DNA of 36,026 nucleotides from Bacteroidota bacterium (GTDB taxonomy: Bacteria > Bacteroidota > Rhodothermia > Rhodothermales > UBA10348): positions 1 to 36,026 of the forward strand of contig JAJCYQ010000057.1 in the NCBI GenBank assembly GCA_029262835.1, read 5' to 3'. Numbering within the stretch: position 1 is the stretch's first letter; each line of letters starts with the position of its first letter. The translations under genes and the position numbers were made by a program. This document shows positions 10,525 through 23,572 of the stretch, piece after piece. The notes beneath the pieces are model-generated. The model saw only the letters and a program-made list of their open reading frames with translations. It was not told the DNA's origin and made no database searches.

Positions 10525-13500
10525 TCACGTGCCGGCCGCCGCCCGGCAGAAGTCTTCTCCCAGAATCCGGTCGAGCGTGGCAATAAGGTATTCGGCGTTC
10601 TGCTCGGTGAAGACCATGGGGGGCTTGATCTTGATGACGTTGCCGTCGGGGCCGTCGGTGCTCGTCAGGACGCCCTCGTCGGCGAGTCGGTTCACAGCGT
10701 AGCGGGCGGCCGTGCGGAGGGGGGCGAGCGAGCCGCCGGGACGCACGAGTTCGACACCGATGAAGAGGCCGGCGCCGCGCACGTCGCCGATGATGTCGTG
10801 CCGCGAAGCGAGCCCCCGCAATTCCGCGAGGAGCTTGCCGCCGACCACGCGGGCGTGCTCCTGCAGTCCTTCCGACTCCAGAACCTCCAGCACCGCGAGC
10901 CCTGCCGCTGCGCTTACCGGGTTGCCGCCGAACGTATTGAAATATTCCATGCCGTTGTCAAATGCATCGGCTATGGCGCGCGTCGTAACGACGGCCGCCA
11001 GCGGGTGCCCATTCCCAATGGGTTTGCCGACGACGACGACATCCGGCACCACGTCCTGGAGCTCGAACCCCCAGAAAGCATCTCCAGCCCGACCGAGACC
11101 GATCTGCACCTCATCGGCGATGAAGAGCCCGCCTGCGCCGCGCACATGCGCCGCCGCGGCCTTGAAATATCCCGGCGGCGGCACAATCTGTCCGCCGCAT
11201 CCAGGGACCGACTCGGCAATGAACGCGGCGATGTGGCCTTCACCAGCCCGCTCATCGCCCTTTGCCGCCTGCTCCAGCGCAACGCGGACCGTGTCCGAAT
11301 ACGCCGCCCCGGTCTCCGCCGTCATGCCGCGATACCGCCCCCGAAAGGCATCGGGCATGGGGACAACGTGCGTGCCCGGCGGCCTCCCCTGGCCGCCCGG
11401 CCCGTCAAACTTGTACGGGCTGATCCCGATGAGCGACGTCAAATGCCCGTGATAGGCGCCGCCCAGCACCATGATGTCCTCGCGCCCCGTAGCCGTGCGC
11501 GCCAGGCGCAGCGCCAAATCGTTCGCTTCGCTTCCCGAGTTCACGGCGTAGACTACGTCGAGCCCCTCGGGCAGCGTCGTCGCCAGGCGCTCGGCAAAAT
11601 GCAGCACGGCCGCGTGCAGATAGCGCGTGTTCGTGTTCAGCGCCCGGTACTGGCGCGTGACGGCATCCACGACGCGCTCATTCTGGTGCCCCACATGCGG
11701 CACATTATTGACCGCATCGAGATAGGCGCGCCCCGTGGGGTCGTACAGATACTGCATGTAGCCCCGCACCATGTGGCGCGGTTCGCGGTAGGCCAGGCTC
11801 AGGTTTGGCCCGAGTACGCGGCGCCTTTTTGCCAGCAGTTCTTCGGTAGATGCAGGCGTCGGCGCCGAGAACCCCCGCTCTGCGCCCTTCGCTTCCACTT
11901 CCGATTGGGCCACTTCCGGTCCTTCCGCGGTCGCGCCGTACGCCCCCGCGAGCCCTGCCAGTAGCGACGGATCCGGGCACAGGCTCCGCCACACCGCCTC
12001 GCGGCTCGGCGGCGCAACACCCGGGAACGTGGCATGCCGGCCAAGCATGTCGGTAATAATCTGCATGTGCAGATGCGGCACCCATCCACCGTTTTCATCG
12101 AACGCCCCGAGCGCCGCAAACGCCTCTCCCGCAGCGACTTCCTGCCCAATCTCGACGCCCAGAACCGATTCGTGCGACAAGTGCCCGTAGAGCGACCAGA
12201 ACCGCTGCGCATCGGCCTGGTGCTCGAGAATTATCACGCCGCCGTAGTCGAACGCCTCCTCATGGATGTGTTTCGAATGGATGCGTCCGCCGAGCGGTGC
12301 GTGCACGGGCGTGCCCGCCGGGCGGAACAGATCGAGCCCCACGTGCAGCGTGCGCATCTCGCCCCAGTCGGTAGCGAACTGCACGCCCGAGTAGGCCAGG
12401 CGGTATTCGCCGTATCGACCAATTCCTACGGCGTCTCCGGTTCGCCGCCATATTTCGTCCTCGGCAAGGCCCGGCACGGTCAAATCGCGCGGCCGGAATT
12501 CGAGGCTCTGGGTGCTGAAATCAAAAACGACGGGCGCAAGACCCGGCACCGCTGGCCGGACAACGGGCTCGAGGCGGCCTTCCCGGGCGCATTTCTTGAT
12601 GCGACGCTCAATGTACGTGCGGACACGATCTGCGCCCGGTACGGGCTCGAGGCCGCAGGCTCCCCGCATGACAAAGATATTCAGTGCGGCCGGTTCACCG
12701 CCCAGCTGCCGAAGCAGCGTCCAGGCCGGCCGCTCACTCACGCTCAAGTACGCATTCTCCGGCTCGAGGCTGCGCTGGTAGGCCGACATGACGACACTCA
12801 CCGCGAGCCGCGTCCGGACAAGCCACGGGATGAGCTCAATCTCCGTTTCGGTGAGCGGCCACTCCTCGTGCCACGCCGCCGCGACCTCGCGCACGGCGGC
12901 CACGGGATCGGTCCGGCCAAGCGCCAGGTACGCGGCCGCCACCGCCAGATCCACGACGCGAGGCCCCACGACGCAGTCCCCGAAATCAATCAGGCCCGTG
13001 ACGGGCGCCATGCCGTCTTCACCGGGCGCGCCCACCAGGATGTTGTGATCATTGGCGTCGTTGTGGATAATCTGCCGCGGGAGCGCAGAGAGCCGGGGCT
13101 GCGTGTGGGCCCGGTAGGATGCGAGGACCTCTTCAAGAGTCTCACGCGCCTCCTCGTCCGAAATCAAATGAAGGTGCTTCTCGATGGTGCGGTCCGCGTG
13201 GAGCAGGTCCCAGGCGAAGGGGTCGGCGGGCTGCGCCGCCCCCACTGTTTCCGCCGCTCCGACTGACTCGCATTCGGCGCCCGTCAGGGCCCGCGCCGTG
13301 CGCGCCATGAGGCGTCCGACCTGCCGGGCATGCTCGGCCAGGATGGGCCGCGCGTGCGCCAGCTTCCGGCCCTCGACCCAGGAAGTGGCCAGAACGAGCC
13401 GCGCTGGTGCGTTTCGGTCGTCGCCGTCCGCACCGCTCCCGTTTTTGCTGCCTGCACCGCTGTCGCCCCCGCTCCGCTCCATTTCGCTCCCAATGGCCAC

Positions 13501-13884
13501 CTGGCACGGCGTCGGCTCGAGCACCTTCGGTACCGGAAGGCCGTCGCGGCCGGCTGCCGTGAGCGCCCGGACAATGCGGTCCACGTCGGCTTCGGACGTC
13601 GCGCGAGAGCAGACCTTGAGCATGGCCACGGGCCTCACTTCATCACTTGGATGTCCGTGCTCGCCGGGCGCTCCCGTACGGCCGTCGAGCCGCCAATTCG
13701 AATCCCGGTCGCCCTCGAGCGGATGCGCCGACTCGATGTGGTTCCAGCCCCAACGCCGCACAAGCTCCATGACCTGGCGCTCGGTGACCAGGGGGCGCTG
13801 GCTCTGGGCGGCCTGGTCCCGGGTTGTCTGGTCCCGGGCCATCTTGTCCTCGAGCGGCTGATTCCTGTCTGGGGTATGCGTCAT
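10525..13884 (-). CDS. Trifunctional fusion: APH-type kinase / M23 peptidase / class III PLP phospholyase
   Basis: 1119 residues. Residues about 35-425 are an aminoglycoside-phosphotransferase-type kinase with HNDANDHN at 274-281 and DFGD at 300-303. Residues about 450-620 are an M23 metallopeptidase domain with HVGLD (His514, Asp518), YGHLS (His568) and HLH (604-606), all zinc/catalytic positions kept. Residues about 690-1119 are a class III PLP enzyme with NSGSEANDLALRLAR, ADEVQIGLGR and the lysine in VGKPIGNGHP (Lys954). The PLP part strongly resembles vertebrate ETNPPL/PHYKPL, which split phosphoethanolamine or 5-phosphohydroxylysine into aldehyde, ammonia and phosphate. The kinase resembles hydroxylysine kinase. 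The fused steps would thus phosphorylate and then cleave hydroxylysine (or ethanolamine). Neighbouring hydroxyproline genes favour hydroxylysine. The job of the M23 part is unclear. The start at 13884 is chosen; the frame is open to 14067 but runs into a repeat. Confidence 0.9.
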   Translation of the reverse strand: MTHTPDRNQPLEDKMARDQTTRDQAAQSQRPLVTERQVMELVRRWGWNHIESAHPLEGDRDSNWRLDGRTGAPGEHGHPSDEVRPVAMLKVCSRATSEADVDRIVRALTAAGRDGLPVPKVLEPTPCQVAIGSEMERSGGDSGAGSKNGSGADGDDRNAPARLVLATSWVEGRKLAHARPILAEHARQVGRLMARTARALTGAECESVGAAETVGAAQPADPFAWDLLHADRTIEKHLHLISDEEARETLEEVLASYRAHTQPRLSALPRQIIHNDANDHNILVGAPGEDGMAPVTGLIDFGDCVVGPRVVDLAVAAAYLALGRTDPVAAVREVAAAWHEEWPLTETEIELIPWLVRTRLAVSVVMSAYQRSLEPENAYLSVSERPAWTLLRQLGGEPAALNIFVMRGACGLEPVPGADRVRTYIERRIKKCAREGRLEPVVRPAVPGLAPVVFDFSTQSLEFRPRDLTVPGLAEDEIWRRTGDAVGIGRYGEYRLAYSGVQFATDWGEMRTLHVGLDLFRPAGTPVHAPLGGRIHSKHIHEEAFDYGGVIILEHQADAQRFWSLYGHLSHESVLGVEIGQEVAAGEAFAALGAFDENGGWVPHLHMQIITDMLGRHATFPGVAPPSREAVWRSLCPDPSLLAGLAGAYGATAEGPEVAQSEVEAKGAERGFSAPTPASTEELLAKRRRVLGPNLSLAYREPRHMVRGYMQYLYDPTGRAYLDAVNNVPHVGHQNERVVDAVTRQYRALNTNTRYLHAAVLHFAERLATTLPEGLDVVYAVNSGSEANDLALRLARTATGREDIMVLGGAYHGHLTSLIGISPYKFDGPGGQGRPPGTHVVPMPDAFRGRYRGMTAETGAAYSDTVRVALEQAAKGDERAGEGHIAAFIAESVPGCGGQIVPPPGYFKAAAAHVRGAGGLFIADEVQIGLGRAGDAFWGFELQDVVPDVVVVGKPIGNGHPLAAVVTTRAIADAFDNGMEYFNTFGGNPVSAAAGLAVLEVLESEGLQEHARVVGGKLLAELRGLASRHDIIGDVRGAGLFIGVELVRPGGSLAPLRTAARYAVNRLADEGVLTSTDGPDGNVIKIKPPMVFTEQNAEYLIATLDRILGEDFCRAAAGT

Positions 13885-13921
13885 GGCGCCTAGAAGCGGG
13901 TTGAACGAGTAGCGGGCCTCT

Positions 13922-14148
13922 CGAACGAGGGTCTTACGAGGTGCAGACAAGGAAGGGCGACGACGCGATGCCGTAGCATCGTGGAGGAGCCATGACGAAG
14001 TATGCGCCCGTAACCCCCTCGTTCCCTTCGGGTTCGGGCGGCATGACAACATCTTCTGCGTTGTCACGCCTATCCGTAGCTACGGCTACGCAGACGTCGT
14101 GACGCCTGGAATCTGTTGTCATGGCGCTCCGAACGAGAGGTCTTCTAC
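13922..14148. repeat. Nested inverted-repeat element with flanking near-direct repeats
   Basis: This lies in the 342-bp gap between the fusion gene and the RHH gene, which has no convincing gene of its own. Outer arms CATGACAACA (14042-14051) and TGTTGTCATG (14114-14123) pair over 10 bp. Inside them are GTCACG (14063-14068) and CGTGAC (14098-14103), with the perfect palindrome CCGTAGCTACGG (14074-14085) at the centre. A further hairpin, CGATGC-CGTA-GCATCG, lies at 13976-13991. The stretch is flanked by CGAACGAGGGTCTT (13922-13935) and CGAACGAGAGGTCTT (14130-14144), which differ by one inserted base and resemble a worn target duplication. It looks like a REP- or MITE-type intergenic element. 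Copies elsewhere in the genome would confirm this. Confidence 0.55.
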
Positions 14149-14226
14149 TTGTTCAACACGCTTCTAAACTACCCCAGCGCGATGCATCTTCAAAGGCAAC
14201 TGACGTGCCCTGGTTAGAGGCCCCAG

Positions 14227-14421
14227 CTACACCTGAATAAAATCGTCCTCACGAGGCTCTACGTCGGGAATACGCCTGAGTGCCGCCTCGAACAGCTTTC
14301 GGTCGCCCCTCGCGGCGCGCTCAGCCAAATAGTCGCCCGTCATCAGCGTCGACACTTTCTCGGCCAGCCTACGCACCCGATTGTCAAGAGAATTGGAAAG
14401 TCTGATGCTCAGTTTGCCCAT
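14227..14421 (-). CDS. Orphan ribbon-helix-helix protein
   Basis: 64 residues from the ATG at 14421 (MGKLSIRLSNSLDNRVRRLAE). The start fits the beta-strand of a ribbon-helix-helix domain, while the longer open frame to 14547 does not look like protein. After the strand comes one helix, RVRRLAEKVSTLM, a second with YLAERAARGD, and an acidic tail PDVEPREDDFIQV. This is antitoxin-like, but no toxin gene adjoins it on either side. It may be a stand-alone regulator or what remains of a toxin-antitoxin pair. An inverted repeat ACGAGGG/CCCTCGT (14466-14472, 14485-14491) about 45 bp upstream could be its operator. Confidence 0.65.
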   Translation of the reverse strand: MGKLSIRLSNSLDNRVRRLAEKVSTLMTGDYLAERAARGDRKLFEAALRRIPDVEPREDDFIQV

Positions 14422-14533
14422 AACACGCTCTCTTTGCTTCAGAGAAACTACGATTTTCGCTGCATACGAGGGCAAAAATCCGTCCCCTCGTTGACTTTGA
14501 CGGTCTGCCAAGTGTTGGTTGCCAGCATCCATC

Positions 14534-14629
14534 ATGAGTTGCTCCACGCTGCCCGGCGGCGTCTACATAATTCGGCTGATAACGCCCACGGGCACGGACA
14601 CGGTGCCGGTGACGGTGATCAATAAGTGA
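14534..14629 (+). pseudogene. Possible remnant of a secreted-protein C-terminal sorting domain
   Basis: A 31-codon frame ends at 14629. Its residues LPGGVYIIRLITPTG and then TDTVPVTVIN-K* look like the end of a type IX secretion C-terminal sorting domain (LPxGVYxxRL ... short strand, basic end). Nothing protein-like lies upstream in frame; a stop occurs at 14498. I read it as the stump of a lost gene next to the repeat element and the RHH gene. The resemblance is short and could be chance. Confidence 0.35.
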
Positions 14630-14641
14630 CTCGCCCGGCCT

Positions 14642-15904
14642 CTACGAAAACCGCCCGGGCGCGAAGGGTTTGGGGTCCAGGATGGGCGACCGGCCCGAGA
14701 TGAGGTCGGCGACCATACGTCCGGTCGCGGGGGCCTGGGTGACGCCGAGCATTCCGTGGCCGGAGGCGACAAGAAAGCGCGCGGCGCCAGGTACGGGGCC
14801 AATGATGGGCAGCCCGTCGGCCGATGCGGGCCGGAAGCCGGTCCAGACGGCGGGTTTTTCGATGGCGAGCGAGGGCCCGGCGTAGAGCTGGGCAAGGCGG
14901 CGAATGGTTTCGAGGCGACGCTCCTCCACGCGACGGTCAAAGCCCGAGAGCGTGAGCGTGCCCGAAAAGCGGAGGACGCCGGCCATTGGCGTGACGGTAA
15001 TGCGCTCATCGAGCATGACGCAGGGAATGCGGATGGTGGCCTCGTGCGTGTTTACGGTCAGGCTGTAGCCGCGCGCGGGCTCAACAGGGAGGCTGAGGCC
15101 CGTTCCGAGGGTTTTTACGAGGCTGGGGGTCCAGGCGCCGGCCGCAACCACGACGAAGTCGCCCCCGACGGACCGGCGCCCGTCCTCGGCCGCGCCATCG
15201 AGAACCACGCCGACCTGGCGGTCAAGGCGGAGCGCCGTGGCATCGACAAACTGGACGCCGCGCGCACGGAGGGCCGCTTCCATGGCCGAGAGGAAGCGCT
15301 CGGGGTGGATGGCGGCGTCGGTGGCGTAGAAGACGCCGCCGGTGATGTCGGTGCGGATGTCGGGTTCGAGGGCGCGGGCTTCAGGTTCGGAGAGCCTGCG
15401 CAGGTCGAGCCCCGCGCCCTCCGCGAGGTCCGCTTCGTGCAGATTGTCCCGCCGGGCCGTGTCGCCGCGGTGCAGCATGAGCAGGCCCGTCCGGCTGTAT
15501 CCTGTTCCGGGCAGCGGGGCTGCGTCGCCGCAGAGCGCATCAAAAAGCCGGAGGCTCTCCATCGAGAGGTCGCGCAGGATGGGAATGCCGTAGGCGACGT
15601 GCTGCGGCGTGGCGTGGCGCGCGAAGAGGTAGAGCCAGCGCAGGAAGTCGGCGCTGAGGCGCGGGGAGATGTGGAAGGGGCTGCTCGAGCTGAGCATCCA
15701 GCGGAGGCCCTTTGAGATCACGCCGGGAGCGGAGAGTGGGATGACGTGACTGGGGACCAGCATGCCGGCGTTTCCGGTGGAGGCCTTGTCATCGGCGCTC
15801 GTCCGGTCAACAACGGTGACGCGCGCGCCTGCCTCCACCAGGTACCAGGCGGTGGAGAGCCCGACGGCGCCGCCACCCACGACCACGACGTCGGAACGAT
15901 TCAT
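14642..15904 (-). CDS. FAD-dependent D-amino-acid oxidase/dehydrogenase, probable cis-4-hydroxy-D-proline oxidase
   Basis: 420 residues of the DadA-like FAD oxidoreductase family. The FAD Rossmann motif VVVVGGGAVGLSTAWYL is at the N-terminus with GxGxxG at residues 10-15, and the closing flavin motif is FRPASADGLPIIGPV followed by ASGHGMLGVTQAP. In hydroxyproline breakdown this enzyme oxidises cis-4-hydroxy-D-proline, the product of the epimerase, to 1-pyrroline-4-hydroxy-2-carboxylate, giving electrons to the respiratory chain or O2. The substrate is assigned from its place 34 bp after the 4-hydroxyproline epimerase gene in the same operon, not from its sequence alone. The start at 15904 (MNRSDVVVV) is preferred over the longer open frame, which has an Ala/Arg-rich, Thr/Ser-rich extension. 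Confidence 0.85.
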   Translation of the reverse strand: MNRSDVVVVGGGAVGLSTAWYLVEAGARVTVVDRTSADDKASTGNAGMLVPSHVIPLSAPGVISKGLRWMLSSSSPFHISPRLSADFLRWLYLFARHATPQHVAYGIPILRDLSMESLRLFDALCGDAAPLPGTGYSRTGLLMLHRGDTARRDNLHEADLAEGAGLDLRRLSEPEARALEPDIRTDITGGVFYATDAAIHPERFLSAMEAALRARGVQFVDATALRLDRQVGVVLDGAAEDGRRSVGGDFVVVAAGAWTPSLVKTLGTGLSLPVEPARGYSLTVNTHEATIRIPCVMLDERITVTPMAGVLRFSGTLTLSGFDRRVEERRLETIRRLAQLYAGPSLAIEKPAVWTGFRPASADGLPIIGPVPGAARFLVASGHGMLGVTQAPATGRMVADLISGRSPILDPKPFAPGRFS

Positions 15905-15938
15905 CGACGGACGTACTGACGGTGGGGCCGCGCCAGCC

Positions 15939-16937
15939 TCAGAGAACCTGGAATCCGTGGGCATAGGGGTCGTCGTCGTCGATGAGGATGTTGTTGTATC
16001 CGGTAATGCGCGCCCAGCCGCCAATGCTGGGCACGATGGCGTCAAACTCCCCGACGCGGGCCAGGCGTTCCACCCGTCCTTCGAAAAGCGAGCCAATAAT
16101 GCTTTCGTGCACGAACATATCGCCCTCGGCGAGCTTGCCGAGCGCGGCCCACTGGGCCATGCGGCTCGACGTGCCCGTGCCGCACGGGCTGCGGTCAATG
16201 GCCTTGTCGCCGTAAAACACCGCGTTGCGGGCCGTGGCGCCTTCCACGGTCGGCGCGCCCGTCCAGAGGATGTGGCTGCACCCGCTGATCCGGCTGTCGA
16301 GAGGGTGTACGAACTCGCAGGCGGCGTTGAGCCGCTCCCGGATGACGCCGCTCATGCGAACGAGCTCGCCGGCCGTGAAATAGGCCATGTCCTGGAAATT
16401 CTCCTGCGCATCGATAATGGCGTAGAAATTGCCGCCGTAGGCGACGTCGATTGAAAGCAGGCCCAGGTCGGGACTCTCTATCGGAATACCGCTCCTGTAG
16501 AGGAACGAGGGAATGTTGACGAGGCGGACGCTGGCCACGCGCTCGCCGTCCATCTCGTAGTAGGCATCGACCCGTCCGGCGGGCGTCTCAAGCCGCAGCA
16601 GGCCGACTTCGGCAGGCTGTGCCAGATGCTCCTCAATGATCACCGTCACCGTGCCGATCGTGCCGTGCCCGCACATGGGCAAGCACCCGCTCGTTTCAAT
16701 GAACAGGATGCCGACGTCGCAGTCGCTGCGCGTGGGCTCGTAGAGGATGCTTCCCGACATCATGTCGTGCCCGCGCGGCTCGAACATCAGACCGCGCCGA
16801 ATCCAGTCGTATTCGGCCAGGAAATGGGCGCGGCGCTCGAGCATGGAGGCGCCTTCAAGCTTGGGCCCGCCTTCCACGACGACCCGGACGGGATTGCCGC
16901 AGGTGTGCGCATCTATACACGAAAAACGGCTTTTCAT
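15939..16937 (-). CDS. 4-hydroxyproline 2-epimerase (proline racemase family)
   Basis: 332 residues. Both catalytic cysteines of a two-base epimerase are present: Cys89 in PMCGHGTIG and Cys252 in DRSPCGTGTSSRMA. DAHTCGNPVRVVVEGGP at the start and MFEPRGHDMMSGS are typical of hydroxyproline epimerases. The reaction converts trans-4-hydroxy-L-proline to cis-4-hydroxy-D-proline at C2. Neighbours that act before or after it (FAD oxidase downstream, deaminase and GntR regulator upstream) strongly support hydroxyproline rather than proline as substrate. It is cytoplasmic, with no signal peptide. Gaps to the neighbours are about 32 bp each, so this is one operon. Confidence 0.93.
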   Translation of the reverse strand: MKSRFSCIDAHTCGNPVRVVVEGGPKLEGASMLERRAHFLAEYDWIRRGLMFEPRGHDMMSGSILYEPTRSDCDVGILFIETSGCLPMCGHGTIGTVTVIIEEHLAQPAEVGLLRLETPAGRVDAYYEMDGERVASVRLVNIPSFLYRSGIPIESPDLGLLSIDVAYGGNFYAIIDAQENFQDMAYFTAGELVRMSGVIRERLNAACEFVHPLDSRISGCSHILWTGAPTVEGATARNAVFYGDKAIDRSPCGTGTSSRMAQWAALGKLAEGDMFVHESIIGSLFEGRVERLARVGEFDAIVPSIGGWARITGYNNILIDDDDPYAHGFQVL

Positions 16938-16969
16938 TCGGGTCAGACCTCAGGGGAATTGGATCGGAG

Positions 16970-17647
16970 TCAGAAGTCGAGCGCCCGGCGCGTGAACGCG
17001 TCGAGGTAGTTTGAGAGGTCCCGGCTGGCGCGCTCGGCGGCTCCTTCGTTCCCATCGGCGACGGCGAGCAGCATGGCCGCGTGGAGCACGGCGCTCTCGA
17101 GCGCATCGTCCGCGTGGCGGTGCCGGAACCAAAAACGTCGGCTGTGGGCGTGCAGCGGCCGCACGGCATCCATCGCGAACGGATTTCGGGCGGCGCGTCC
17201 GAGCGCCTCGTCACATTGCCGGTCAAGCGCCATGAACTGCTCCGTGTCGTCCGCAGCCACGGCCTGCTGCATGAGCGCGGCGCACTCGCTCAGTTCGCTG
17301 CGATCCTGTGGCGTCGCGCGCCGGGCGGCCTGCCCGGCCAGGAGTTCGTCTAGCACGGCCCGCGTATCGAGCGCGTCGAGGTAGGCGAGCCCGTCAATCT
17401 CCGTAATCCGGATGCCGACGCGCGGCACAATGCGCACGAGGCGGTCGGCCTCCAGCCGCTGCAGCGCCTCGCGCACGGGCGTGCGCCCCAGCCCGACCTG
17501 TGCGGCCAGATCCTGTTCGCTGTGCGTCGACCCAGGCTCCAGGCGCAGCGTTACAATCTGCTCCTCGAGCCGGTCGTAGGCGCTGTCGGTTTTGGTCGGG
17601 AGGTCTGTCCGGGTAGATGCGTCCGTTGCGCTTTCCTGTGCATTCAC
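16970..17647 (-). CDS. GntR-family (FCD) transcriptional regulator of the hydroxyproline operon
   Basis: 225 residues if it starts at GTG 17647; no better in-frame start is visible and the frame continues upstream into the deaminase gene. The winged helix reads LEEQIVTLRLEPGSTHSEQDLAAQVGLGRTPVREALQRLE in pieces near residues 25-65, the classic GntR signature. An FCD effector domain follows, with ALDTRAVLDELLAGQAA, then DRQCDEALGRAARNPF and a His-rich HSRRFWFRHRHADD. In many FCD members a His sits where Asp of CDEAL is here, so metal binding may differ. Sitting inside the operon, it probably controls it in response to a hydroxyproline-derived ligand. The AT-rich palindrome at 18642-18673 is its likely operator. 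Confidence 0.88.
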   Translation of the reverse strand: MNAQESATDASTRTDLPTKTDSAYDRLEEQIVTLRLEPGSTHSEQDLAAQVGLGRTPVREALQRLEADRLVRIVPRVGIRITEIDGLAYLDALDTRAVLDELLAGQAARRATPQDRSELSECAALMQQAVAADDTEQFMALDRQCDEALGRAARNPFAMDAVRPLHAHSRRFWFRHRHADDALESAVLHAAMLLAVADGNEGAAERASRDLSNYLDAFTRRALDF

Positions 17648-17690
17648 GGGTTCATCGGTTTTGATTAAGACAAGGCTGGAAGGTGCGCCA

Positions 17691-18599
17691 TCATACGTAG
17701 TCCGATACGTCGGGGCGGTTGTCGAGTGCCGTGCGAATGACGTTTTCAACGTACGTCCGCTCCTCGCCAACAAGCGGGAGCCGGGGCGGGCGGACGTGCT
17801 CTGTGCCGAGGCCCACCATTTTCTCGGCCAGCTTGATGTTCTGTACGAGCTTGGCGTGCACGTCGAGGTCGAGGAGCGGCTTGAACCAGCGGTAAATATC
17901 ACGCGCTTCGGCGAGCCGTCCGGCCTGCACCAGGTTGTAGATGGCGACCGTTTCGCGCGGGAAGGCGCACACGAGACCCGCCACCCAGCCGACGGCGCCC
18001 GCCGCCAGGCTTTCAAGGGCGATGTTGTCAACACCCGTAAAAATCTGATACCTGTCGCCGCATGCATTGTATATGTCGGTCACGCGGCGCACATCGTCCG
18101 AGCTCTCCTTGAGCGCGACGAACATCTCTTCGTCGGCGAGCTCGGCGAACATCTCGGGCGTCGTATCGACCTTGTAGAGCACCGGATTATTGTAGATCAT
18201 GATGGGCTTGCCGCTGGCGCGCGCCACCGCCCGGAAGTGGACCATCGTTTCGCGGCGATCGCTCGCATAGAGCATGGCGGGCAGCACCATGAAGCCGTCC
18301 GCGCCATTGACCATGCCGTCCTCGACGGCCTGGCAGGCGCGCTGCGTCGTGGTTTCGGCGATTCCCATGAGGACCGGAACGCGGCCGTTCACGGCTTCGG
18401 CTACAATGCGCAGCACCTCCTGCTTCTCCTCGAACGAGAGCGAACCGTTCTCGCCGAGCGTACCCGTCACGACAATGCCGTGCACGCCGCCATCGAGCTG
18501 GGCTTCAACATGGCGCTCCATGGCGCCGTAGTCGAGCGAGAGATCTTCCTTGAACTTGGTGGTAATGGCGGGGAAAACCCCCTTCCAGGGTGTAGACAT
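17691..18599 (-). CDS. DapA-family 1-pyrroline-4-hydroxy-2-carboxylate deaminase
   Basis: 302 residues of the dihydrodipicolinate synthase/N-acetylneuraminate lyase family. The Schiff-base lysine is Lys164 in VALKESSDD, the helper tyrosine is Tyr136 in PIMIYNNPV, and the carboxylate-binding TGTLGEN is at 45-51. In the hydroxyproline pathway this enzyme deaminates and decarboxylates 1-pyrroline-4-hydroxy-2-carboxylate to 2-oxoglutarate semialdehyde. The following dehydrogenase step has no gene in this window. The role is assigned from the operon with epimerase and oxidase; without that context KDG-type or other DapA relatives would be possible. ATG 18599 is the first gene of the leftward operon, directly downstream of the palindromic control region. 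Confidence 0.88.
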   Translation of the reverse strand: MSTPWKGVFPAITTKFKEDLSLDYGAMERHVEAQLDGGVHGIVVTGTLGENGSLSFEEKQEVLRIVAEAVNGRVPVLMGIAETTTQRACQAVEDGMVNGADGFMVLPAMLYASDRRETMVHFRAVARASGKPIMIYNNPVLYKVDTTPEMFAELADEEMFVALKESSDDVRRVTDIYNACGDRYQIFTGVDNIALESLAAGAVGWVAGLVCAFPRETVAIYNLVQAGRLAEARDIYRWFKPLLDLDVHAKLVQNIKLAEKMVGLGTEHVRPPRLPLVGEERTYVENVIRTALDNRPDVSDYV

Positions 18600-18641
18600 G
18601 TGTTGAAGTGGCGTTTTTGAGGGATTCTGGGTGGTTTTTGC

Positions 18642-18673
18642 TGATATATCATAGATATATCTATAATATATCA
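18642..18673. promoter_or_regulatory. AT-rich palindromic control site of the hydroxyproline operon
   Basis: A perfect 14-bp palindrome ATAGATATATCTAT (18651-18664) is framed by TGATATAT (18642-18649) and ATATATCA (18666-18673), so the whole 32 bp is nearly symmetrical. It lies 43 bp upstream of the deaminase ATG and overlaps the stop codon of the ATPase gene. Its AT-rich run stands out in G+C-rich surroundings. It is a good candidate for GntR binding and/or the core promoter. Confidence 0.55.
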
Positions 18674-20143
18674 GTCCTCCGCGTTGGATGCAATCGGAAT
18701 CATGTTGGCACGTTGACGACCCGGTATCACGTTGTACCCGACGGAGAAACAGTAGACGCTGGCAGGAATGAACAACAACTCAATCCCCCGCCGCCGAACG
18801 CTACGACGCTTTGTTTTGGACGTGATTACAACGCGATCAAGCCCGTTCTGCAGAGCAAAGTCTACGTACCGGTCACATTCTTCAGGGCGATCAGCGAATC
18901 GATCCGTCCATTTGAATTCGGTAACCCAGGCTACCTGCTGCCTCGCATCCAGACACACGAGGTCCAGTTCGCCTGCCTTCCATCGTGCGTAGTAAAGCGG
19001 GGTATGGGGCTCGTGAAACCACTGGGAGAATGCGGCCGTCTCTACAAGGTCTCCGGCCGCCTCGTCAGATTCAATAATTGGCGCAAAGAGCGCGGACCGC
19101 ATGGACGGGTTGGCCAGATAGACCTTGAAGTAGTTCTGCCTTCTGAACCGCTTCGCGTTCTGGTCTACGCGATGGATGATCTTGATCAGAAACGCGGCTT
19201 CGAGGTATTCGATGTATCGCTTGATGGTATTCTTGGCAACCCCGGAGTTTTGCGACAAGCCCTCAAGTGACACTTCCTGGGCCGTATTGAATGCCAGGGT
19301 TGAGAACAGGTAGTTCAACTCCTGTATGTCTCGAATGCCGTACAGACTGGGCAAGTCTCTCAGGAGCACCTTGTCCACGATGTCGCTCTTGATGAACCGC
19401 GCCATGTCCTCCCGGATGGCGCTGGAAAGAACCACCTCTGGATATCCGCCAAAGTTGATGTAATCGACGAAGTGCGCATTCAATGCTTCGAGATCTGATG
19501 AGGCAAAATAGCCATCTGCTTCCTCGTCACGATCCGTGTCAACAAGGTCAGGTCTTCCAACGAGGACCAGGAATTCGTAAAAGGTCAAGGGAGGGAGGAA
19601 GAAGTCGGTAAAACGCCCTGCGCCACTTTCAGTAGACTGCATGCGGAGGGCCGCTGCCGCGGACCCAGATGCAACGATCTGTACGTTCTGTTGACTGTCG
19701 ACGATTGCCTTGAGGTACTTCTCCCAGTCTCGGAGATACTGAATCTCATCGAAGAAGACATACTGCAGGCTTCCATCTTCCGGTTGAGCCGTTGTCCGGT
19801 ACAGTTTCACGAAGCTGTCGAGGTCCAGCCCGGTGTAGATGGGATGATCTACTGATATATAACAGATACGGCGAGGCGAAACTCCGGAAGCGATGAGTCT
19901 GGAAACGGCGTGATGGATCATGACCGTCTTCCCGACGCGTCTCGGGCCCATCAGAACCACAGCCCGATTGACCTCTGACTTCTCGACGAATGGATAAAAC
20001 AGATCGAGGTACGGCCTCGGAGTGAGCTTCCGGAGCCCCTCCTGGACGTCACCGGATGCCCACCAGGGATTCTCGGTTTCCAAACGGGTCCGAATCTGTA
20101 TTTCTGATATCCCACGCATGCGTGTATTTGCATCTTGAATCAA
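18671..20143 (-). CDS. AAA_14/DUF4143 ATPase
   Basis: 490 residues. Walker A is GPRRVGKT (66-73), Walker B is YVFFDEIQYL, and a sensor-like ASGSAAAAL follows, as in the AAA_14 family. The C-terminal DUF4143 part includes INFGGYPEVVLS, the winged-helix-like LSQNSGVAKNTIKRYIEYLEAAFLIKII and an endonuclease-like fold end with GELDLVCLD ... VTEFKWTDR. The ELD...EFK spacing recalls PD-(D/E)xK nucleases, though activity is unproven. Such ATPases are widespread, often strain-specific, and of unknown function; some are thought mobile or defence-linked. It is less G+C-rich by eye than the hydroxyproline genes, which suggests transfer. ATG 20143 or the ATG eight codons on (20119) are possible starts. 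Confidence 0.88.
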   Translation of the reverse strand: MIQDANTRMRGISEIQIRTRLETENPWWASGDVQEGLRKLTPRPYLDLFYPFVEKSEVNRAVVLMGPRRVGKTVMIHHAVSRLIASGVSPRRICYISVDHPIYTGLDLDSFVKLYRTTAQPEDGSLQYVFFDEIQYLRDWEKYLKAIVDSQQNVQIVASGSAAAALRMQSTESGAGRFTDFFLPPLTFYEFLVLVGRPDLVDTDRDEEADGYFASSDLEALNAHFVDYINFGGYPEVVLSSAIREDMARFIKSDIVDKVLLRDLPSLYGIRDIQELNYLFSTLAFNTAQEVSLEGLSQNSGVAKNTIKRYIEYLEAAFLIKIIHRVDQNAKRFRRQNYFKVYLANPSMRSALFAPIIESDEAAGDLVETAAFSQWFHEPHTPLYYARWKAGELDLVCLDARQQVAWVTEFKWTDRFADRPEECDRYVDFALQNGLDRVVITSKTKRRSVRRRGIELLFIPASVYCFSVGYNVIPGRQRANMIPIASNAED

Positions 20144-20404
20144 CGTACTGACTCAAGGTAACATGTTGGTCGCTTAAGATCAACATGATGATCTTGATAG
20201 GGTACTGGAACGCCATCTGCTGCACGGTTGTGAAAGTCAGCCGGAACGGCGCAGGCTGAGCCTTCAAAACCTGGGTAGTTGATATATGCGCTTCTGACAG
20301 GTCCGCCAAGGAAGCAAGCTCAGGTTTCAAAGTCTGAAGGATGAGCCTGCGTCTTTGGCCCACCCTCGCCAGCGCGATATGTTGCTGCTTCGATTTATAC
20401 AGGC
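20144..20404. other. Gap between ATPase and amidohydrolase genes, with imperfect palindrome
   Basis: 261 bp without a convincing gene. AAGATCAACATGATGATCTT at 20176-20195 is a 20-bp palindrome with two symmetric mismatches, 33 bp upstream of the ATPase start, and could be a regulator site for it. Confidence 0.4.
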
Positions 20405-21694
20405 TCATCTTTCATGGGCCTGCCCATCTCGTGCATACCACGCCTCAATCTCCGCGAGGCGGGTGTCGATCTCGGAGCGGGGCACGAAGCGGCCGCGAAG
20501 CATGACGCCTTCGATGGCATCGATGGCGCGGATGTCTTCGAGCGGGTTGGCAGCCAGAAGAACGAGGTCGGCGCGGTGGCCTTCGGCGACGAGGCCGAAG
20601 GTGTCGTTGTCCTTGAAATAGCGGCCGACATCGCGCGTTCCGGATACCAGGACCTCGTAGGGGGTCATGCCGGCCCGCACCATGTAGGCGACTTCGCGGT
20701 GGAGAGAAAAGCCGGGAATGGAGAACTGCTGCGGGGCGTCGGTGCCCATCAGGATGGGCACGCCGCCATCGGAAAGCGCCTTCAGGATGATTTTGCGGTT
20801 TTCGGCCATCTGCTGACCACTCGGCGGGGCGTTTTCGAGGCGCGTGCGGTAGGCCCGCGTCCACGCGGCGACGTTTTGCGGCGAGGTGTACCGGAGCTCG
20901 GGCCTCGCTCTCATTTCGTCGAGCGATGCAACGCCCAGGAAGAGCTCCCAAAGCACGCTCGTCGGGACAATCCAGGCGCCCGCCTCGCGGGTTTTTTCGA
21001 CGATCGCGCGGAGATCGGCCGCGTCCGGCGGACCGTCCGTGCCGAGGTGCGCGCCGAATCCATCCATATGATCGAACGTCTCCTGACCGGTCTCCAGTGC
21101 GTGCAGGAGGCCGACATCCTGGGGCACGTGCCCGCCGAACCGGATGCCGAGGCGGGCCGCTTCGTCCGCCATGGCGTCGTAGACGCCCCGCGAAAGGCCC
21201 GGGTGGACTTTGAGAAGATCCCACCCTTCAGCGACCTGCGTGCGCACACGGGCTCGGGCCTCCTCGGGGGTCTGGACGGTCTGGCCCGAGAAGCTGGGAC
21301 CTGCCAGGTAGAGCATGGGCGAGAGAAGCTGTCCCGTGCGCACCTCTTCCCTCAGCTCGAGTTGTCCGGGCCATCCCAGCATGCCGCGGACGGTCGTAAT
21401 GCCGTTGGCCGCATAGAGAAAGAGCACGGCTTCGATTTCTTCCCGGGGCTGGGTAGGGGGTGGAATGTGCCCATGCATCTCGGCCAGCCCCGGCATAAGC
21501 CACATCCCCGACCCATCAATGACCGTTGCTCCAGCGGGCACGTCGACCTCGGAAGTGGGTCCGACCGCCACGATCCGGTCGCCGTCCACGATGACCGTAT
21601 GGCGCGGAAGTACGCGCTCGCTGTCCATGGGCAGCACATTCACGTTCACAAACGCGGTCACAGCCGCCAGAAAAGTCAGTAGAAGAGGCATCAT
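20405..21694 (-). CDS. Exported COG1228 amidohydrolase, prolidase/imidazolonepropionase-like
   Basis: 429 residues. The hydrophobic N-terminus (MMPLLLTFLAAVTAFV) suggests export. All binuclear-metal ligands of the amidohydrolase superfamily are present: MHGH (His74, His76), the lysine to be carboxylated in LLKVHPGLS (Lys162), GGHVPQD (His189), FDHMDG (His209) and MGTDAP (Asp319). This is the imidazolonepropionase-like group that contains Xaa-Pro and Xaa-Arg/Lys dipeptidases. Given the adjacent hydroxyproline genes, cleavage of Xaa-Pro or Xaa-Hyp dipeptides in the periplasm is attractive, but family members have many substrates. It is transcribed divergently from the 3-hydroxyproline dehydratase gene with 87 bp between starts. 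Confidence 0.85.
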   Translation of the reverse strand: MMPLLLTFLAAVTAFVNVNVLPMDSERVLPRHTVIVDGDRIVAVGPTSEVDVPAGATVIDGSGMWLMPGLAEMHGHIPPPTQPREEIEAVLFLYAANGITTVRGMLGWPGQLELREEVRTGQLLSPMLYLAGPSFSGQTVQTPEEARARVRTQVAEGWDLLKVHPGLSRGVYDAMADEAARLGIRFGGHVPQDVGLLHALETGQETFDHMDGFGAHLGTDGPPDAADLRAIVEKTREAGAWIVPTSVLWELFLGVASLDEMRARPELRYTSPQNVAAWTRAYRTRLENAPPSGQQMAENRKIILKALSDGGVPILMGTDAPQQFSIPGFSLHREVAYMVRAGMTPYEVLVSGTRDVGRYFKDNDTFGLVAEGHRADLVLLAANPLEDIRAIDAIEGVMLRGRFVPRSEIDTRLAEIEAWYARDGQAHER

Positions 21695-21705
21695 GATGTT
21701 GCTGC

Positions 21706-21718
21706 AATGTGTTACATT
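21706..21718. promoter_or_regulatory. Short inverted repeat AATGT-GTT-ACATT between divergent genes
   Basis: Perfect 5-bp arms in the 87-bp space shared by the amidohydrolase and 3-hydroxyproline dehydratase promoters. This is a weak operator candidate; short repeats of this size also arise by chance. Confidence 0.25.
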
Positions 21719-21781
21719 TCCATTTGAACCCGACCCGCAAGATCATGCTTTTTGGTGAATGGTGCGCACACGTTTCGGCTC

Positions 21782-22933
21782 ATGACCTCGCCTGAACGCA
21801 TTACCGTCGTTGATGCCCACACGGAGGGCGAGCCGCTGCGCGTCATAACGGGCGGGTATCCGCAGCCAAGCGGCGAGACGGTACTGGAGCGCCGCCGCTA
21901 TGCAAAGGCGCATCTGGACCGCTACCGCACGGCGCTCATGTACGAGCCCCGGGGGCACGCGGACATGTACGGCTGCCTGATCATGCCGCCCGTGTCGGCA
22001 ACGGCGCATTTCTCGGTACTTTTCCTGCACAACGAGGGGTACTCGACCATGTGCGGGCACGGTATTCTGGGCGTTACGCGCGTCGTGCTGGAGGAAATTC
22101 TGGGAGATGCGGCGCACGGCGTGGAGGCCACCGCGCGCGGCCGGGTGGACCACGCGCTGGACGCGAGGCACGCCATTCGGGATCTTGCGCCAGCGGCATC
22201 GTGTCCGGACGGCGATGTCGAGGTTCGGATAGATACGCCGGCGGGTCTTGTAACGGCCCGCGCGGCGGTCGCGGCCGGGCGCGTACATACCATCCGGTTC
22301 AGAAACGTGGCCTCGTGGGCCGCGGCGCTGGACGCCGAAGTTGATGTACCGGGACTCGGCCGCGTGCGGTACGACATCGGGTACGGCGGCGCGTTTTATG
22401 CGTTTGTCGACGCCGAGCCGCTTGGTCTCACGCTTACGCCGCCGCATGCGCGGCAGCTGATTGACGCCGGCATGCGCATAAAACGCGCCGTCATGCGGGC
22501 CCATCCACTCACGCATCCGGAGTCCGAGGACCTGGCGTTCCTCTACGGTACTATTTTCACGGGGCCGCCCGCGCGCGCCGAGAACCATTCGCGGCATGTC
22601 TGCATTTTCGCCGAGGGCGAGCTCGATCGCAGCCCGACAGGAACAGGCGTGAGCGCGCGGGCGGCCCTGCTCGCCGCGCGGGGCGCGCTCCAGGTGGATC
22701 GAGGGGCGCACGATGCGCCGACGAGCGTATCGATAGAAAGCATTCTCGGGACGACCTTCACCGTCCGGATTGTGGATGCGGCAGGCGGTGATGGCGGTGC
22801 GCGTGAGGCGGGCGGCGCGTGTCCTGCGAACGCTGTTATTCCCGAAGTCGGTGGCCGCGCGTACATTACGGGTCATTCGACGCTGCTTCTGGATGCGAAC
22901 GATCCGCTTCGTGACGGTTTTCTGATCCGATGA
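21782..22933 (+). CDS. trans-3-hydroxy-L-proline dehydratase (proline racemase family)
   Basis: 383 residues of the proline racemase fold. The first catalytic cysteine is kept (Cys91 in STMCGHG), but the second is a threonine (Thr286 in DRSPTGTGVSARAAL). This Cys/Thr pair marks trans-3-hydroxy-L-proline dehydratases such as human L3HYPDH, which form 1-pyrroline-2-carboxylate, rather than epimerases. The N-terminus DAHTEGEPLRV also fits. There are unusual insertions around residues 108-145 and in the C-terminal part (GGDGGAREAGG). I use the ATG at 21782; TTG 21752 and GTG 21755 would add ten or nine residues. A reductase giving proline from the product would be expected elsewhere. The downstream membrane-protein gene begins 36 bp later. 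Confidence 0.88.
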   Translation: MTSPERITVVDAHTEGEPLRVITGGYPQPSGETVLERRRYAKAHLDRYRTALMYEPRGHADMYGCLIMPPVSATAHFSVLFLHNEGYSTMCGHGILGVTRVVLEEILGDAAHGVEATARGRVDHALDARHAIRDLAPAASCPDGDVEVRIDTPAGLVTARAAVAAGRVHTIRFRNVASWAAALDAEVDVPGLGRVRYDIGYGGAFYAFVDAEPLGLTLTPPHARQLIDAGMRIKRAVMRAHPLTHPESEDLAFLYGTIFTGPPARAENHSRHVCIFAEGELDRSPTGTGVSARAALLAARGALQVDRGAHDAPTSVSIESILGTTFTVRIVDAAGGDGGAREAGGACPANAVIPEVGGRAYITGHSTLLLDANDPLRDGFLIR

Positions 22934-22969
22934 CACGACATCTGACACGGCGATGACCGGACTTCCGAC

Positions 22970-23572
22970 ATGACGACGCTCGATGCGCTCGACATCGTGG
23001 GCACGTTCGTGTTCGCGGTCGCTGGAGGGTTCCGGGCGACGCGTCACAACCTGGATCTGCTCGGCGTCATGGTGCTCGCCGTGGCGACGGGGGTCGGGGG
23101 CGGGATGATCCGCGACATGCTGCTCGGCGCGACGCCCGTGGCGGCGCTCGAGAGTGAGCTTTACCTGGGCGTGTGCCTCATTGGCGGCGGCGTGGCGTTT
23201 GTGGCGTCATCGCGCGTCGCAACCGAGTGGAACCGGGTCATGATTGCCGATGCCGTCGGGCTCGGCGTGTTCGCGGCCATCGGGGCGATGAAGGCGCTCG
23301 CGTTCGGTCTCGGTCCTATTGGCGTCATGATGATGGCGGCGCTTACGGCTACGGGCGGCGGCGCCGTCCGCGATGTGCTTGTGCGAGAAGTCCCGGCCGT
23401 TGTCCGCCACGATTTTTACGCGACGGCCGCGCTTATCGGCGCCGCCGCCCTTCTGGGGGCCGAAGCCGCTGGCTTCGGCCCCACCTTCCAGATATGGACC
23501 GCCATTGTCGTCACCTCGGGGCTCCGTTTCTACGCCATGTTCCACGGCGTGGATTTGCCGAGGGCCCGCTGA
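22970..23572 (+). CDS. TRIC / UPF0126 (glycine transporter family) membrane protein
   Basis: 200 residues, seven predicted helices made of two similar halves. Each half has a Gly-rich motif: TGVGGGMIRDMLLG in the first and TATGGGAVRDVLV in the second. These are hallmarks of the UPF0126/trimeric intracellular cation channel family (E. coli YicG/YadS). Bacterial members are named TRIC channels by structure and a glycine transporter domain in Pfam. Co-directional and 36 bp after the 3-hydroxyproline dehydratase, it may move an amino acid such as glycine or a hydroxyproline product, or balance ions during uptake. That role is inference from context. Confidence 0.85.
   Translation: MTTLDALDIVGTFVFAVAGGFRATRHNLDLLGVMVLAVATGVGGGMIRDMLLGATPVAALESELYLGVCLIGGGVAFVASSRVATEWNRVMIADAVGLGVFAAIGAMKALAFGLGPIGVMMMAALTATGGGAVRDVLVREVPAVVRHDFYATAALIGAAALLGAEAAGFGPTFQIWTAIVVTSGLRFYAMFHGVDLPRAR

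What the first reader, a model, noticed from the sequence alone, without database searches (positions are those of the whole stretch)
10525..23572. Candidate collagen-residue catabolic island: 4-hydroxyproline, 3-hydroxyproline and hydroxylysine genes together
Seen: a Cys/Cys epimerase, DadA-like oxidase, DapA-like deaminase and GntR regulator in one operon; a Cys/Thr proline-racemase-family protein; a fusion joining an APH kinase to a PHYKPL/ETNPPL-like lyase; a prolidase-type amidohydrolase; and a TRIC/glycine-transporter-family gene. Known: trans-4-hydroxyproline, 3-hydroxyproline and 5-hydroxylysine are all hallmarks of collagen. Inferred: the set lets the cell use collagen peptides. I know of no described locus that joins all three routes.
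Basis: partly seen in the sequence, partly recalled or inferred. Interest (0 to 1): 0.82.

Follow-up and report, generated by a model that had tools for sequence, protein, structure and literature searches.

The report
Collagen hydroxy-amino-acid breakdown operon with fusion
A bacterium carries, side by side and partly behind one likely switch, genes to break down the unusual hydroxylated amino acids typical of collagen, including a three-part enzyme whose substrate in bacteria seems untested and which this operon suggests is hydroxylysine.

Summary
The genes are really there. Candidates for the missing steps lie together on another contig: an ALDH nearest to alpha-ketoglutarate-semialdehyde dehydrogenase and a Pyr2C reductase above its curated cut-off. 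The strongest new evidence is conservation: the fusion lies behind hypE-dao in 21 of 27 genomes of this family (7 of 10 genera), overlapping or within 40 bp in 14 of 15 loci measured outside the closest species, and the operon is preceded by a palindrome TGATATATYA in 26 of 27 operons. So here the fusion is a regular member of a hydroxyproline operon. That favours hydroxylysine over ethanolamine as its substrate but does not prove it. The contiguous three-route cluster was seen only in this genus. Weak points: no M9 or U32 collagenase above cut-off, the 'prolidase' is unsupported, no linkage found outside the family, and an ~800-bp gap before the fusion in this genome. The parts are known; I found no description of the combination among the papers listed by ten searches.

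The parts
10525..13842 (-). tri-domain fusion: APH-type kinase, M23 metallopeptidase domain, class-III PLP phospholyase (candidate hydroxylysine kinase / phosphohydroxylysine phospho-lyase)
   Evidence: Pfam; NCBIfam PRK06148 subfamily 1065 bits, just under cut-off 1128; PLP domain nearest PDB 6tor, human ethanolamine-phosphate phospho-lyase (50% identity); catalytic residues invariant in 32 of 32 aligned sequences; AlphaFold2 pLDDT 85.5, pTM 0.87
13843..14641 (.). ~800-bp gap between dao and the fusion with a small ORF (14227-14547) of no Pfam family; in G001 an AAA_21 gene and a further ORF lie at this place
14642..15907 (-). dao: D-amino-acid-dehydrogenase-like FAD protein (candidate cis-4-hydroxy-D-proline dehydrogenase)
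   Evidence: Pfam DAO 231 bits; operon position
15939..16937 (-). hypE: 4-hydroxyproline 2-epimerase, Cys/Cys
   Evidence: NCBIfam NF010578 561 bits over cut-off 376; motif
16970..17650 (-). gntR: GntR/FCD regulator, same domain type as Streptomyces HypR; start uncertain
   Evidence: Pfam GntR and FCD; PMC6608401 passages
17691..18599 (-). [quoted passage not shown]
   Evidence: Pfam DHDPS 187 bits; operon position
18642..18673 (.). candidate operator: three ATATAT-centred palindromes at 11-bp spacing, upstream of dapA
20405..21694 (-). amidohydrolase, found next to the cluster only in the genus; function uncertain
21752..22933 (+). [quoted passage not shown]
   Evidence: motif CGHG/SPTGTG; nearest PDB 6r76 and 7qpo; homologues with the same motif lie directly before a gene 33-35% identical to the Pyr2C reductase in 3 of 3 loci looked at
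22970..23572 (+). TRIC / Gly_transporter-family membrane protein; beside dapA in 8 genomes of other genera

Best explanation
This is a catabolic island for the hydroxylated amino acids of collagen-type peptides, in a Rhodothermales-like bacterium. Core operon (strong): hypE epimerises trans-4-hydroxy-L-proline, dao oxidises the D-isomer, the DapA-like enzyme deaminates to alpha-ketoglutarate semialdehyde, and an unlinked ALDH finishes; a GntR/FCD regulator acting at the TGATATATYA palindromes upstream of dapA probably controls it (inferred). Second route (good): the Cys/Thr protein dehydrates trans-3-hydroxy-L-proline to Pyr2C, which the unlinked reductase turns into proline. Third route (inferred): the fusion phosphorylates free 5-hydroxylysine with its APH domain and its PLP domain eliminates phosphate and ammonia to give 2-aminoadipate semialdehyde. 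The M23 domain looks catalytically competent and may trim peptides; its role is unknown. Shown: genes, residues, gene order, conservation of the palindromes. Inferred: every substrate, above all hydroxylysine, and the regulator-palindrome pairing.
For: 4-Hyp epimerase above curated cut-off. Pyr2C reductase above curated cut-off, 356 vs 322, beside an ALDH whose best NCBIfam models are 2,5-dioxovalerate and alpha-KGSA dehydrogenase, though below their cut-offs, 534/526 vs 750/770. Fusion follows hypE-dao in 21 of 27 family genomes, 7 of 10 genera; in 14 of 15 linked loci tabulated (G002 and 14 of other genera) its first possible start lies between 70 bp before and 36 bp after the dao stop; identity to our fusion is mostly 50-59%. 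Palindrome within 200 bp upstream of dapA in 26 of 27 operons (mononucleotide-shuffle mean 0.014, a control that ignores kinship) and in 4 of 4 further operons of the order in which dapA was in the stretch; of 18 genomes counted, TGATATATYA occurs only upstream of dapA in G011, G012, G019, G028 and G036 and only inside or upstream of the Hyp operon in G010. PLP domain falls with phospho-lyases (469 and 314 bits; the next solved chain 177). Cys/Thr homologues lie directly before a reductase-like gene in 3 of 3 loci.
Against: 5 of 27 family genomes keep the fusion apart from the Hyp operon and 1 is unresolved at a contig end. Of 42 relatives outside the family with a match to the fusion (some to its PLP domain alone, some without a proline-racemase gene, many in fragments) none has the two within 10 kb. 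75 of 80 named loci have no hypE in the flank held; the 5 that do are contigs of this family. So there is no independent, convergent linkage; the quick tree does not decide how often the linkage arose. The closest solved relative acts on phosphoethanolamine, and no EutB was found (0 of 28), so the fusion could be the cell's ethanolamine route. The C95 ALDH is under the cut-off of the L-piperidine-6-carboxylate (2-aminoadipate semialdehyde) dehydrogenase model (402 vs 730). In this genome the gap before the fusion is ~800 bp, and the ALDH-reductase stretch has no palindrome. In G002 the strict palindrome is missing at dapA. The t3HypD assignment scores below the NCBIfam cut-off (306 vs 540).
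Confidence: 0.62

Rival explanations
1. The fusion is an ethanolamine kinase / phosphoethanolamine phospho-lyase for membrane-lipid head groups, placed behind the Hyp operon because both feed on animal-derived debris or by historical accident.
For: PLP domain 50% identical to human ethanolamine-phosphate phospho-lyase; the fusion is spread over many phyla without Hyp linkage in 75 of 80 named loci; no EutB in 28 genomes searched.
Against: Conserved tight coupling to the hydroxyproline operon in 21 of 27 family genomes and to its palindromes. No solved phosphohydroxylysine phospho-lyase was named among the 60 hits shown, so the nearest hit cannot discriminate. In Sinorhizobium the fusion lies beside an amino-acid ABC transporter gene.
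Confidence: 0.27
2. Only a 4-hydroxyproline operon is functionally coherent; the Cys/Thr gene, amidohydrolase, TRIC and CutC are unrelated neighbours, and Hyp could come from plant or algal cell-wall proteins rather than collagen.
For: The Cys/Thr gene and amidohydrolase join the cluster only in the genus; no M9 or U32 collagenase over cut-off.
Against: Two hydroxyproline-type genes plus a Pyr2C reductase and an aconitase X pair in one genome; another family member, G007, keeps a trans-3-Hyp dehydratase over its cut-off elsewhere (647 vs 550); the fusion is operonic in most linked relatives.
Confidence: 0.25
3. The TGATATATYA box is not an operator but a dispersed palindromic repeat.
For: 17 places in this genome; the 16 besides the window's are scattered by gene orientation (6 tandem, 4 convergent, 4 divergent, 2 inside genes).
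Against: Present upstream of dapA in 26 of 27 operons, and found nowhere but at the Hyp operon in 6 of 18 genomes counted; the many extra copies are a feature of G000, G001 and G003, with a few in others such as G018.
Confidence: 0.12

Closest known systems
Bacterial 4HypE and t3HypD catabolic neighbourhoods (eLife 2014, PMC4113996; passages seen)
   Same: Epimerase, DAAO, DHDPS, ALDH and OCD genes and their pathway logic; neighbourhoods serving both 4-Hyp and 3-Hyp are already described
   Different: The words hydroxylysine and phosphotransferase do not occur in its main text
Colwellia collagen-utilisation cluster (PMC7883544; passages and section 12 read)
   Same: 4-Hyp epimerase, D-amino-acid dehydrogenase, deaminase, KGSA dehydrogenase, pyrroline reductase
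   Different: Has a secreted M9 collagenase, PPIase and transporters; the word hydroxylysine does not occur. Here no collagenase over cut-off, but a kinase-phospholyase fusion
HypR of Streptomyces coelicolor (PMC6608401; abstract and passages seen)
   Same: GntR/FCD regulator of hydroxyproline utilisation, regulon proposed to include collagen degradation
   Different: Different binding motif (CTNTGC(A/C)ATGTCAC)
Human hydroxylysine kinase and phospho-lyases AGPHD1/AGXT2L1/AGXT2L2 (Veiga-da-Cunha et al. 2012; not held; title seen in a reference list; content recalled)
   Same: APH-type kinase plus class-III PLP phospho-lyase; that paper, as I recall, already noted bacterial bi- and tri-functional fusions
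   Different: Bacterial fusion carries an M23 domain and, to my knowledge, has no tested substrate
PRK06148 / NF004799 family
   Same: Full-length match to this roughly 1,000-residue family, 1065 bits
   Different: Slightly under the cut-off of 1128; the family is described only as hypothetical protein

Membership tests
trans-4-hydroxyproline (HypE) pathway | 4-Hyp epimerase with Cys/Cys pair | tested here: met
   561 bits vs 376; MCGHG and SPCGTG
trans-4-hydroxyproline (HypE) pathway | D-Hyp oxidase/dehydrogenase and Pyr4H2C deaminase genes in the operon | tested here: met
   DAO and DHDPS families, order conserved; activities not tested
trans-4-hydroxyproline (HypE) pathway | alpha-KGSA dehydrogenase | tested here: inconclusive
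   Unlinked ALDH, best models 2,5-dioxovalerate and alpha-KGSA DH but under cut-offs
trans-3-hydroxyproline dehydratase | second catalytic Cys replaced by Thr | tested here: met
   rule stated in PMC4113996
trans-3-hydroxyproline dehydratase | NCBIfam equivalog cut-off | tested here: not met
   306 vs 540; G002 homologue 364 vs 540
trans-3-hydroxyproline dehydratase | Pyr2C reductase in the genome or next to homologues | tested here: met
   356 vs 322 in own genome, on another contig; a gene 33-35% identical to it lies directly after Cys/Thr homologues in 3 of 3 loci
hydroxylysine kinase + phosphohydroxylysine phospho-lyase | APH kinase with conserved residues | tested here: met
   Pfam APH; K76, D262, N267, D286, D289 invariant in 32 of 32 aligned sequences; their catalytic roles are recalled
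hydroxylysine kinase + phosphohydroxylysine phospho-lyase | class-III PLP domain of the phospho-lyase group | tested here: met
   K940 invariant
hydroxylysine kinase + phosphohydroxylysine phospho-lyase | substrate is 5-hydroxylysine | not testable with these tools
   needs enzyme assay
hydroxylysine kinase + phosphohydroxylysine phospho-lyase | 2-aminoadipate semialdehyde dehydrogenase in the genome | tested here: inconclusive
   C95 ALDH 402 vs 730 for the L-piperidine-6-carboxylate DH model; no other of the six ALDH genes showed it over cut-off in the lists printed
collagenolytic system | M9 or U32 collagenase | tested here: not met
   U32 none; M9 20.5 bits under cut-off 26
amidohydrolase-type prolidase | Xaa-Pro dipeptidase model cut-off | tested here: not met
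   92.8 vs 500

The most novel reading that the evidence does not exclude
The bacterial APH-M23-phospholyase fusion is a one-protein hydroxylysine pathway: its cytosolic M23 domain, whose metal ligands are invariant, cuts hydroxylysine out of glycine-rich (Gly-X-Hyl-Gly) collagen peptides, the APH domain phosphorylates it and the PLP domain breaks it down; in this family it is switched on together with hydroxyproline catabolism.
Probability: 0.2. Interest if true: 0.75.

Novelty: new variant of a known kind. Interest (0 to 1): 0.56.

Why it matters
The three-domain fusion is found in many phyla, yet no paper that tests its substrate was among those listed by my searches (lists were capped and most subscription journals are not held). 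A conserved operon that ties it to hydroxyproline, behind one set of palindromes, gives a specific substrate hypothesis that can be tested with one purified protein, and a route to the role of the odd M23 domain. It would also mark bacteria able to use all the hydroxylated residues of collagen or gelatin.

Tried and rejected
Prolidase reading of the amidohydrolase: rejected for lack of support. Neighbours of the fusion in other phyla as a guide to substrate: 60 of 99 adjacent same-strand ORFs were scanned (39 left out: those of this family, near-copies, very long or contig-edge ORFs, some second neighbours); of 90 families found the first 25 were shown, and the commonest was aldo/keto reductase, 3 of 60, so no guide. 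Box copies elsewhere in the genome as a collagen regulon: several lie near peptidase genes (S46, M20 twice, M19) and one behind aconitase X, but gene orientation around them is scattered, so a dispersed repeat is as likely. Motif regexes over the 80 named fusions were strict: 41 of 80 met all three, 9 had no suitable open frame; I relied instead on the alignment of 32 sequences (window plus 31 chosen from the 80 for a clear reading frame). The tree is the quick one because the careful search did not finish; 13 of 57 loci were lost to a motif filter, only 2 unlinked family rows remained, and ungrouped rows lie among the linked ones, so it does not show one origin. A longest-ORF gene caller gave spurious antisense genes around the boxes; replaced by a codon-usage caller trained on window genes. 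Of 10 further Hyp loci fetched, 6 had no dapA match in the stretch and no box; only the other 4 entered the count.
Full report
What is in the window. On the minus strand, dapA-like (17691-18599), gntR/FCD (16970-~17650), hypE (15939-16937) and dao (14642-15907) form a tight operon. HypE scores 561 bits against a curated cut-off of 376 for 4-hydroxyproline epimerase and has both catalytic cysteines. About 800 bp further lies the fusion (10525-13842). It has three domains, not two: APH kinase, Peptidase_M23 and a class-III aminotransferase fold. On the plus strand lie a second proline-racemase-family gene with a Cys/Thr pair (21752-22933), a TRIC-family gene and cutC. The window is contig C57 of a 3.45-Mb genome, 97.6% complete, and these are its only two proline-racemase-family genes.

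The missing steps. Candidates lie together on contig C95 (L164): an ALDH whose two best NCBIfam models are 2,5-dioxovalerate and alpha-KGSA dehydrogenase (534 and 526 bits, under cut-offs of 750 and 770), then a reductase that passes its curated cut-off (PRK06141, 356 vs 322), then a second DAO gene. The three-gene order recurs in G001 and G003. An aconitase X large subunit (441 bits) and swivel subunit (79 bits) lie on contig C5. Single-chain aconitase X is a cis-3-hydroxy-L-proline dehydratase (PMC5144071, abstract and passages); the activity of the two-chain form is not given in what I read.

The 3-hydroxyproline gene. Its nearest solved relatives are 6r76 (355 bits, deposited as proline racemase; [quoted passage not shown] a chain named proline racemase A follows at 204. 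It stays under the NCBIfam cut-off (306 vs 540). In three relatives of family f15 a homologue 50-51% identical, with the same Cys/Thr motifs, is followed directly by a gene 33-35% identical to the C95 reductase. Another member of the window's own family, G007, carries a different dehydratase, unlinked, over its cut-off (647 vs 550).

Conservation of the operon. I compared 27 genomes of the family (G000-G026). The fusion follows hypE-dao on the same strand in 21; in five it lies elsewhere (G005, G010, G012, G016, G019) and in one (G003) a contig ends between them. In G026 only the start of the fusion is on the contig. The 21 cover 7 of 10 genera. For 15 of the 21 (G002 and 14 of other genera) I tabulated the junction: in 14 the first possible fusion start lies between 70 bp before and 36 bp after the dao stop; in G009 the open frame overlaps further. 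In G000 the gap is ~800 bp and in G001 two ORFs lie between; G021, G022, G024 and G026 were not tabulated. In the five unlinked genomes the Hyp operon carries an ALDH gene of another type; three linked ones (G004, G008, G014) carry an alpha-KGSA-like ALDH between dapA and gntR. Outside the family, 42 relatives match the fusion, some in the PLP domain alone; none has it within 10 kb of a proline-racemase gene (in G066 the distance is 17 kb), though many assemblies are in fragments. Of the 80 best named loci (of at least 585 that encode a relative), 5 carry hypE beside the fusion, and all 5 are contigs of this family. Several of the 80 have short flanks. The quick tree groups 16 linked rows with one change against only 2 unlinked family rows, while rows of no group lie among them, so it does not settle the number of origins. 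My reading is one origin, kept through long divergence.

A shared switch. Upstream of dapA the palindrome TGATATATCA/TGATATATTA, often repeated at 11-bp spacing, lies within 200 bp in 26 of 27 operons (26 of the family plus G036; the exception, G002, has TAATATATTA). Mononucleotide shuffles give a mean of 0.014 operons, but kinship also helps such a count. Four of four further operons of the order whose dapA was in the stretch have it too. In 18 genomes counted with TGATATATYA, it occurs only upstream of dapA in G011, G012, G019, G028 and G036 and only at the Hyp operon in G010; G058, G087 and G100 have none; in some others (G002, G007, G013) the total is near the reversed control. In the window it is at 18642-18673. 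A GntR/FCD protein, HypR, controls hydroxyproline use in Streptomyces from a different site (PMC6608401). That the gntR product binds the box is inferred.

What the fusion does. The PLP domain falls with phospho-lyases: human ethanolamine-phosphate phospho-lyase 469 bits and the bacterial phospho-lyase 5g4i 314 bits, the next solved chain 177; the model agrees, 50% identity to 6tor. Kinase, M23 and PLP residues, including H500, D504, H590 and H592, which by the recalled HxxxD/HxH motif would be the M23 metal site, are invariant in 32 of 32 aligned sequences (window plus 31 from several phyla). AlphaFold2 gives pLDDT 85.5 and pTM 0.87. These data cannot separate phosphoethanolamine from phosphohydroxylysine. 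Operon context favours hydroxylysine, which is typical of collagen-like proteins (established knowledge). Against it stand the ethanolamine-type nearest structure and the absence of EutB in 28 genomes, which leaves the fusion free to be the ethanolamine route. A lead: in six f15 loci with the fusion, neighbours recur: a DHDPS-family gene (6 of 6), a galactokinase-like gene (4 of 6; the one tested, in L073, is over its cut-off, 278 vs 227), an FKBP-like prolyl isomerase (5 of 6) and an M24 Xaa-Pro-type peptidase (5 of 6); the last two are under the NCBIfam cut-offs where tested. Galactose is the sugar on collagen hydroxylysine, but this is only suggestive.

Limits. No U32 peptidase was found and M9 only under cut-off; six M24 matches exist. 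So use of peptides is likelier than attack on native collagen. The three-route cluster is on one contig in G000, G001 and G002 of this genus; in G003 it is split over two contigs.

Comparison with print. Neighbourhoods serving both 4-Hyp and 3-Hyp are known (PMC4113996) and a collagen cluster with 4-Hyp and proline genes is known in Colwellia (PMC7883544); the word hydroxylysine occurs in neither main text. Among the papers listed by my ten searches (several lists were capped) none describes a bacterial hydroxylysine kinase-phospholyase operon; the library lacks most subscription journals, and the key 2012 paper on the human enzymes is not held.

Noticed in passing
own genome, 17 places incl. 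window 18642-18673: The operator-like box has multiplied in this genus (46 strand matches in G000 against 1 for the reversed control; 17 in G001, 21 in G003, 4 in G002). Many copies repeat the local triple form, in scattered gene orientations: a palindromic repeat born from an operator, or a widened regulon. G018 shows the same with its own double form.
   Followed up: partly
L061, L064, L065, L069, L070, L073: In family f15 the same fusion sits near a galactokinase-like gene, a DHDPS-family gene, an FKBP-like prolyl isomerase and an M24 Xaa-Pro-type peptidase, which would suit galactosyl-hydroxylysine peptides.
   Followed up: partly
L224 4108-6060 (G000:C5): Two-chain aconitase X genes, followed at once by a box copy.
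   Followed up: partly
window 22970-23572 and relatives: A TRIC/Gly_transporter gene lies beside dapA in G010, G011, G013, G014, G017, G022, G023 and G025; glycine is a third of collagen.
   Followed up: partly
L049, L053, L055, L057, L180: A sodium:solute symporter gene follows the fusion in five genomes, a candidate transporter.
   Followed up: no
window 13843-14641; L040 3332-5340: The dao-fusion junction is an insertion spot in this genus: an AAA_21 gene and a further ORF in G001, a small unassigned ORF here.
   Followed up: partly
window about 20247-20420; L228, L230, L233, L235, L238: A dispersed DNA repeat of 115-184 bp (73-88% alike) at the end of the amidohydrolase gene.
   Followed up: no
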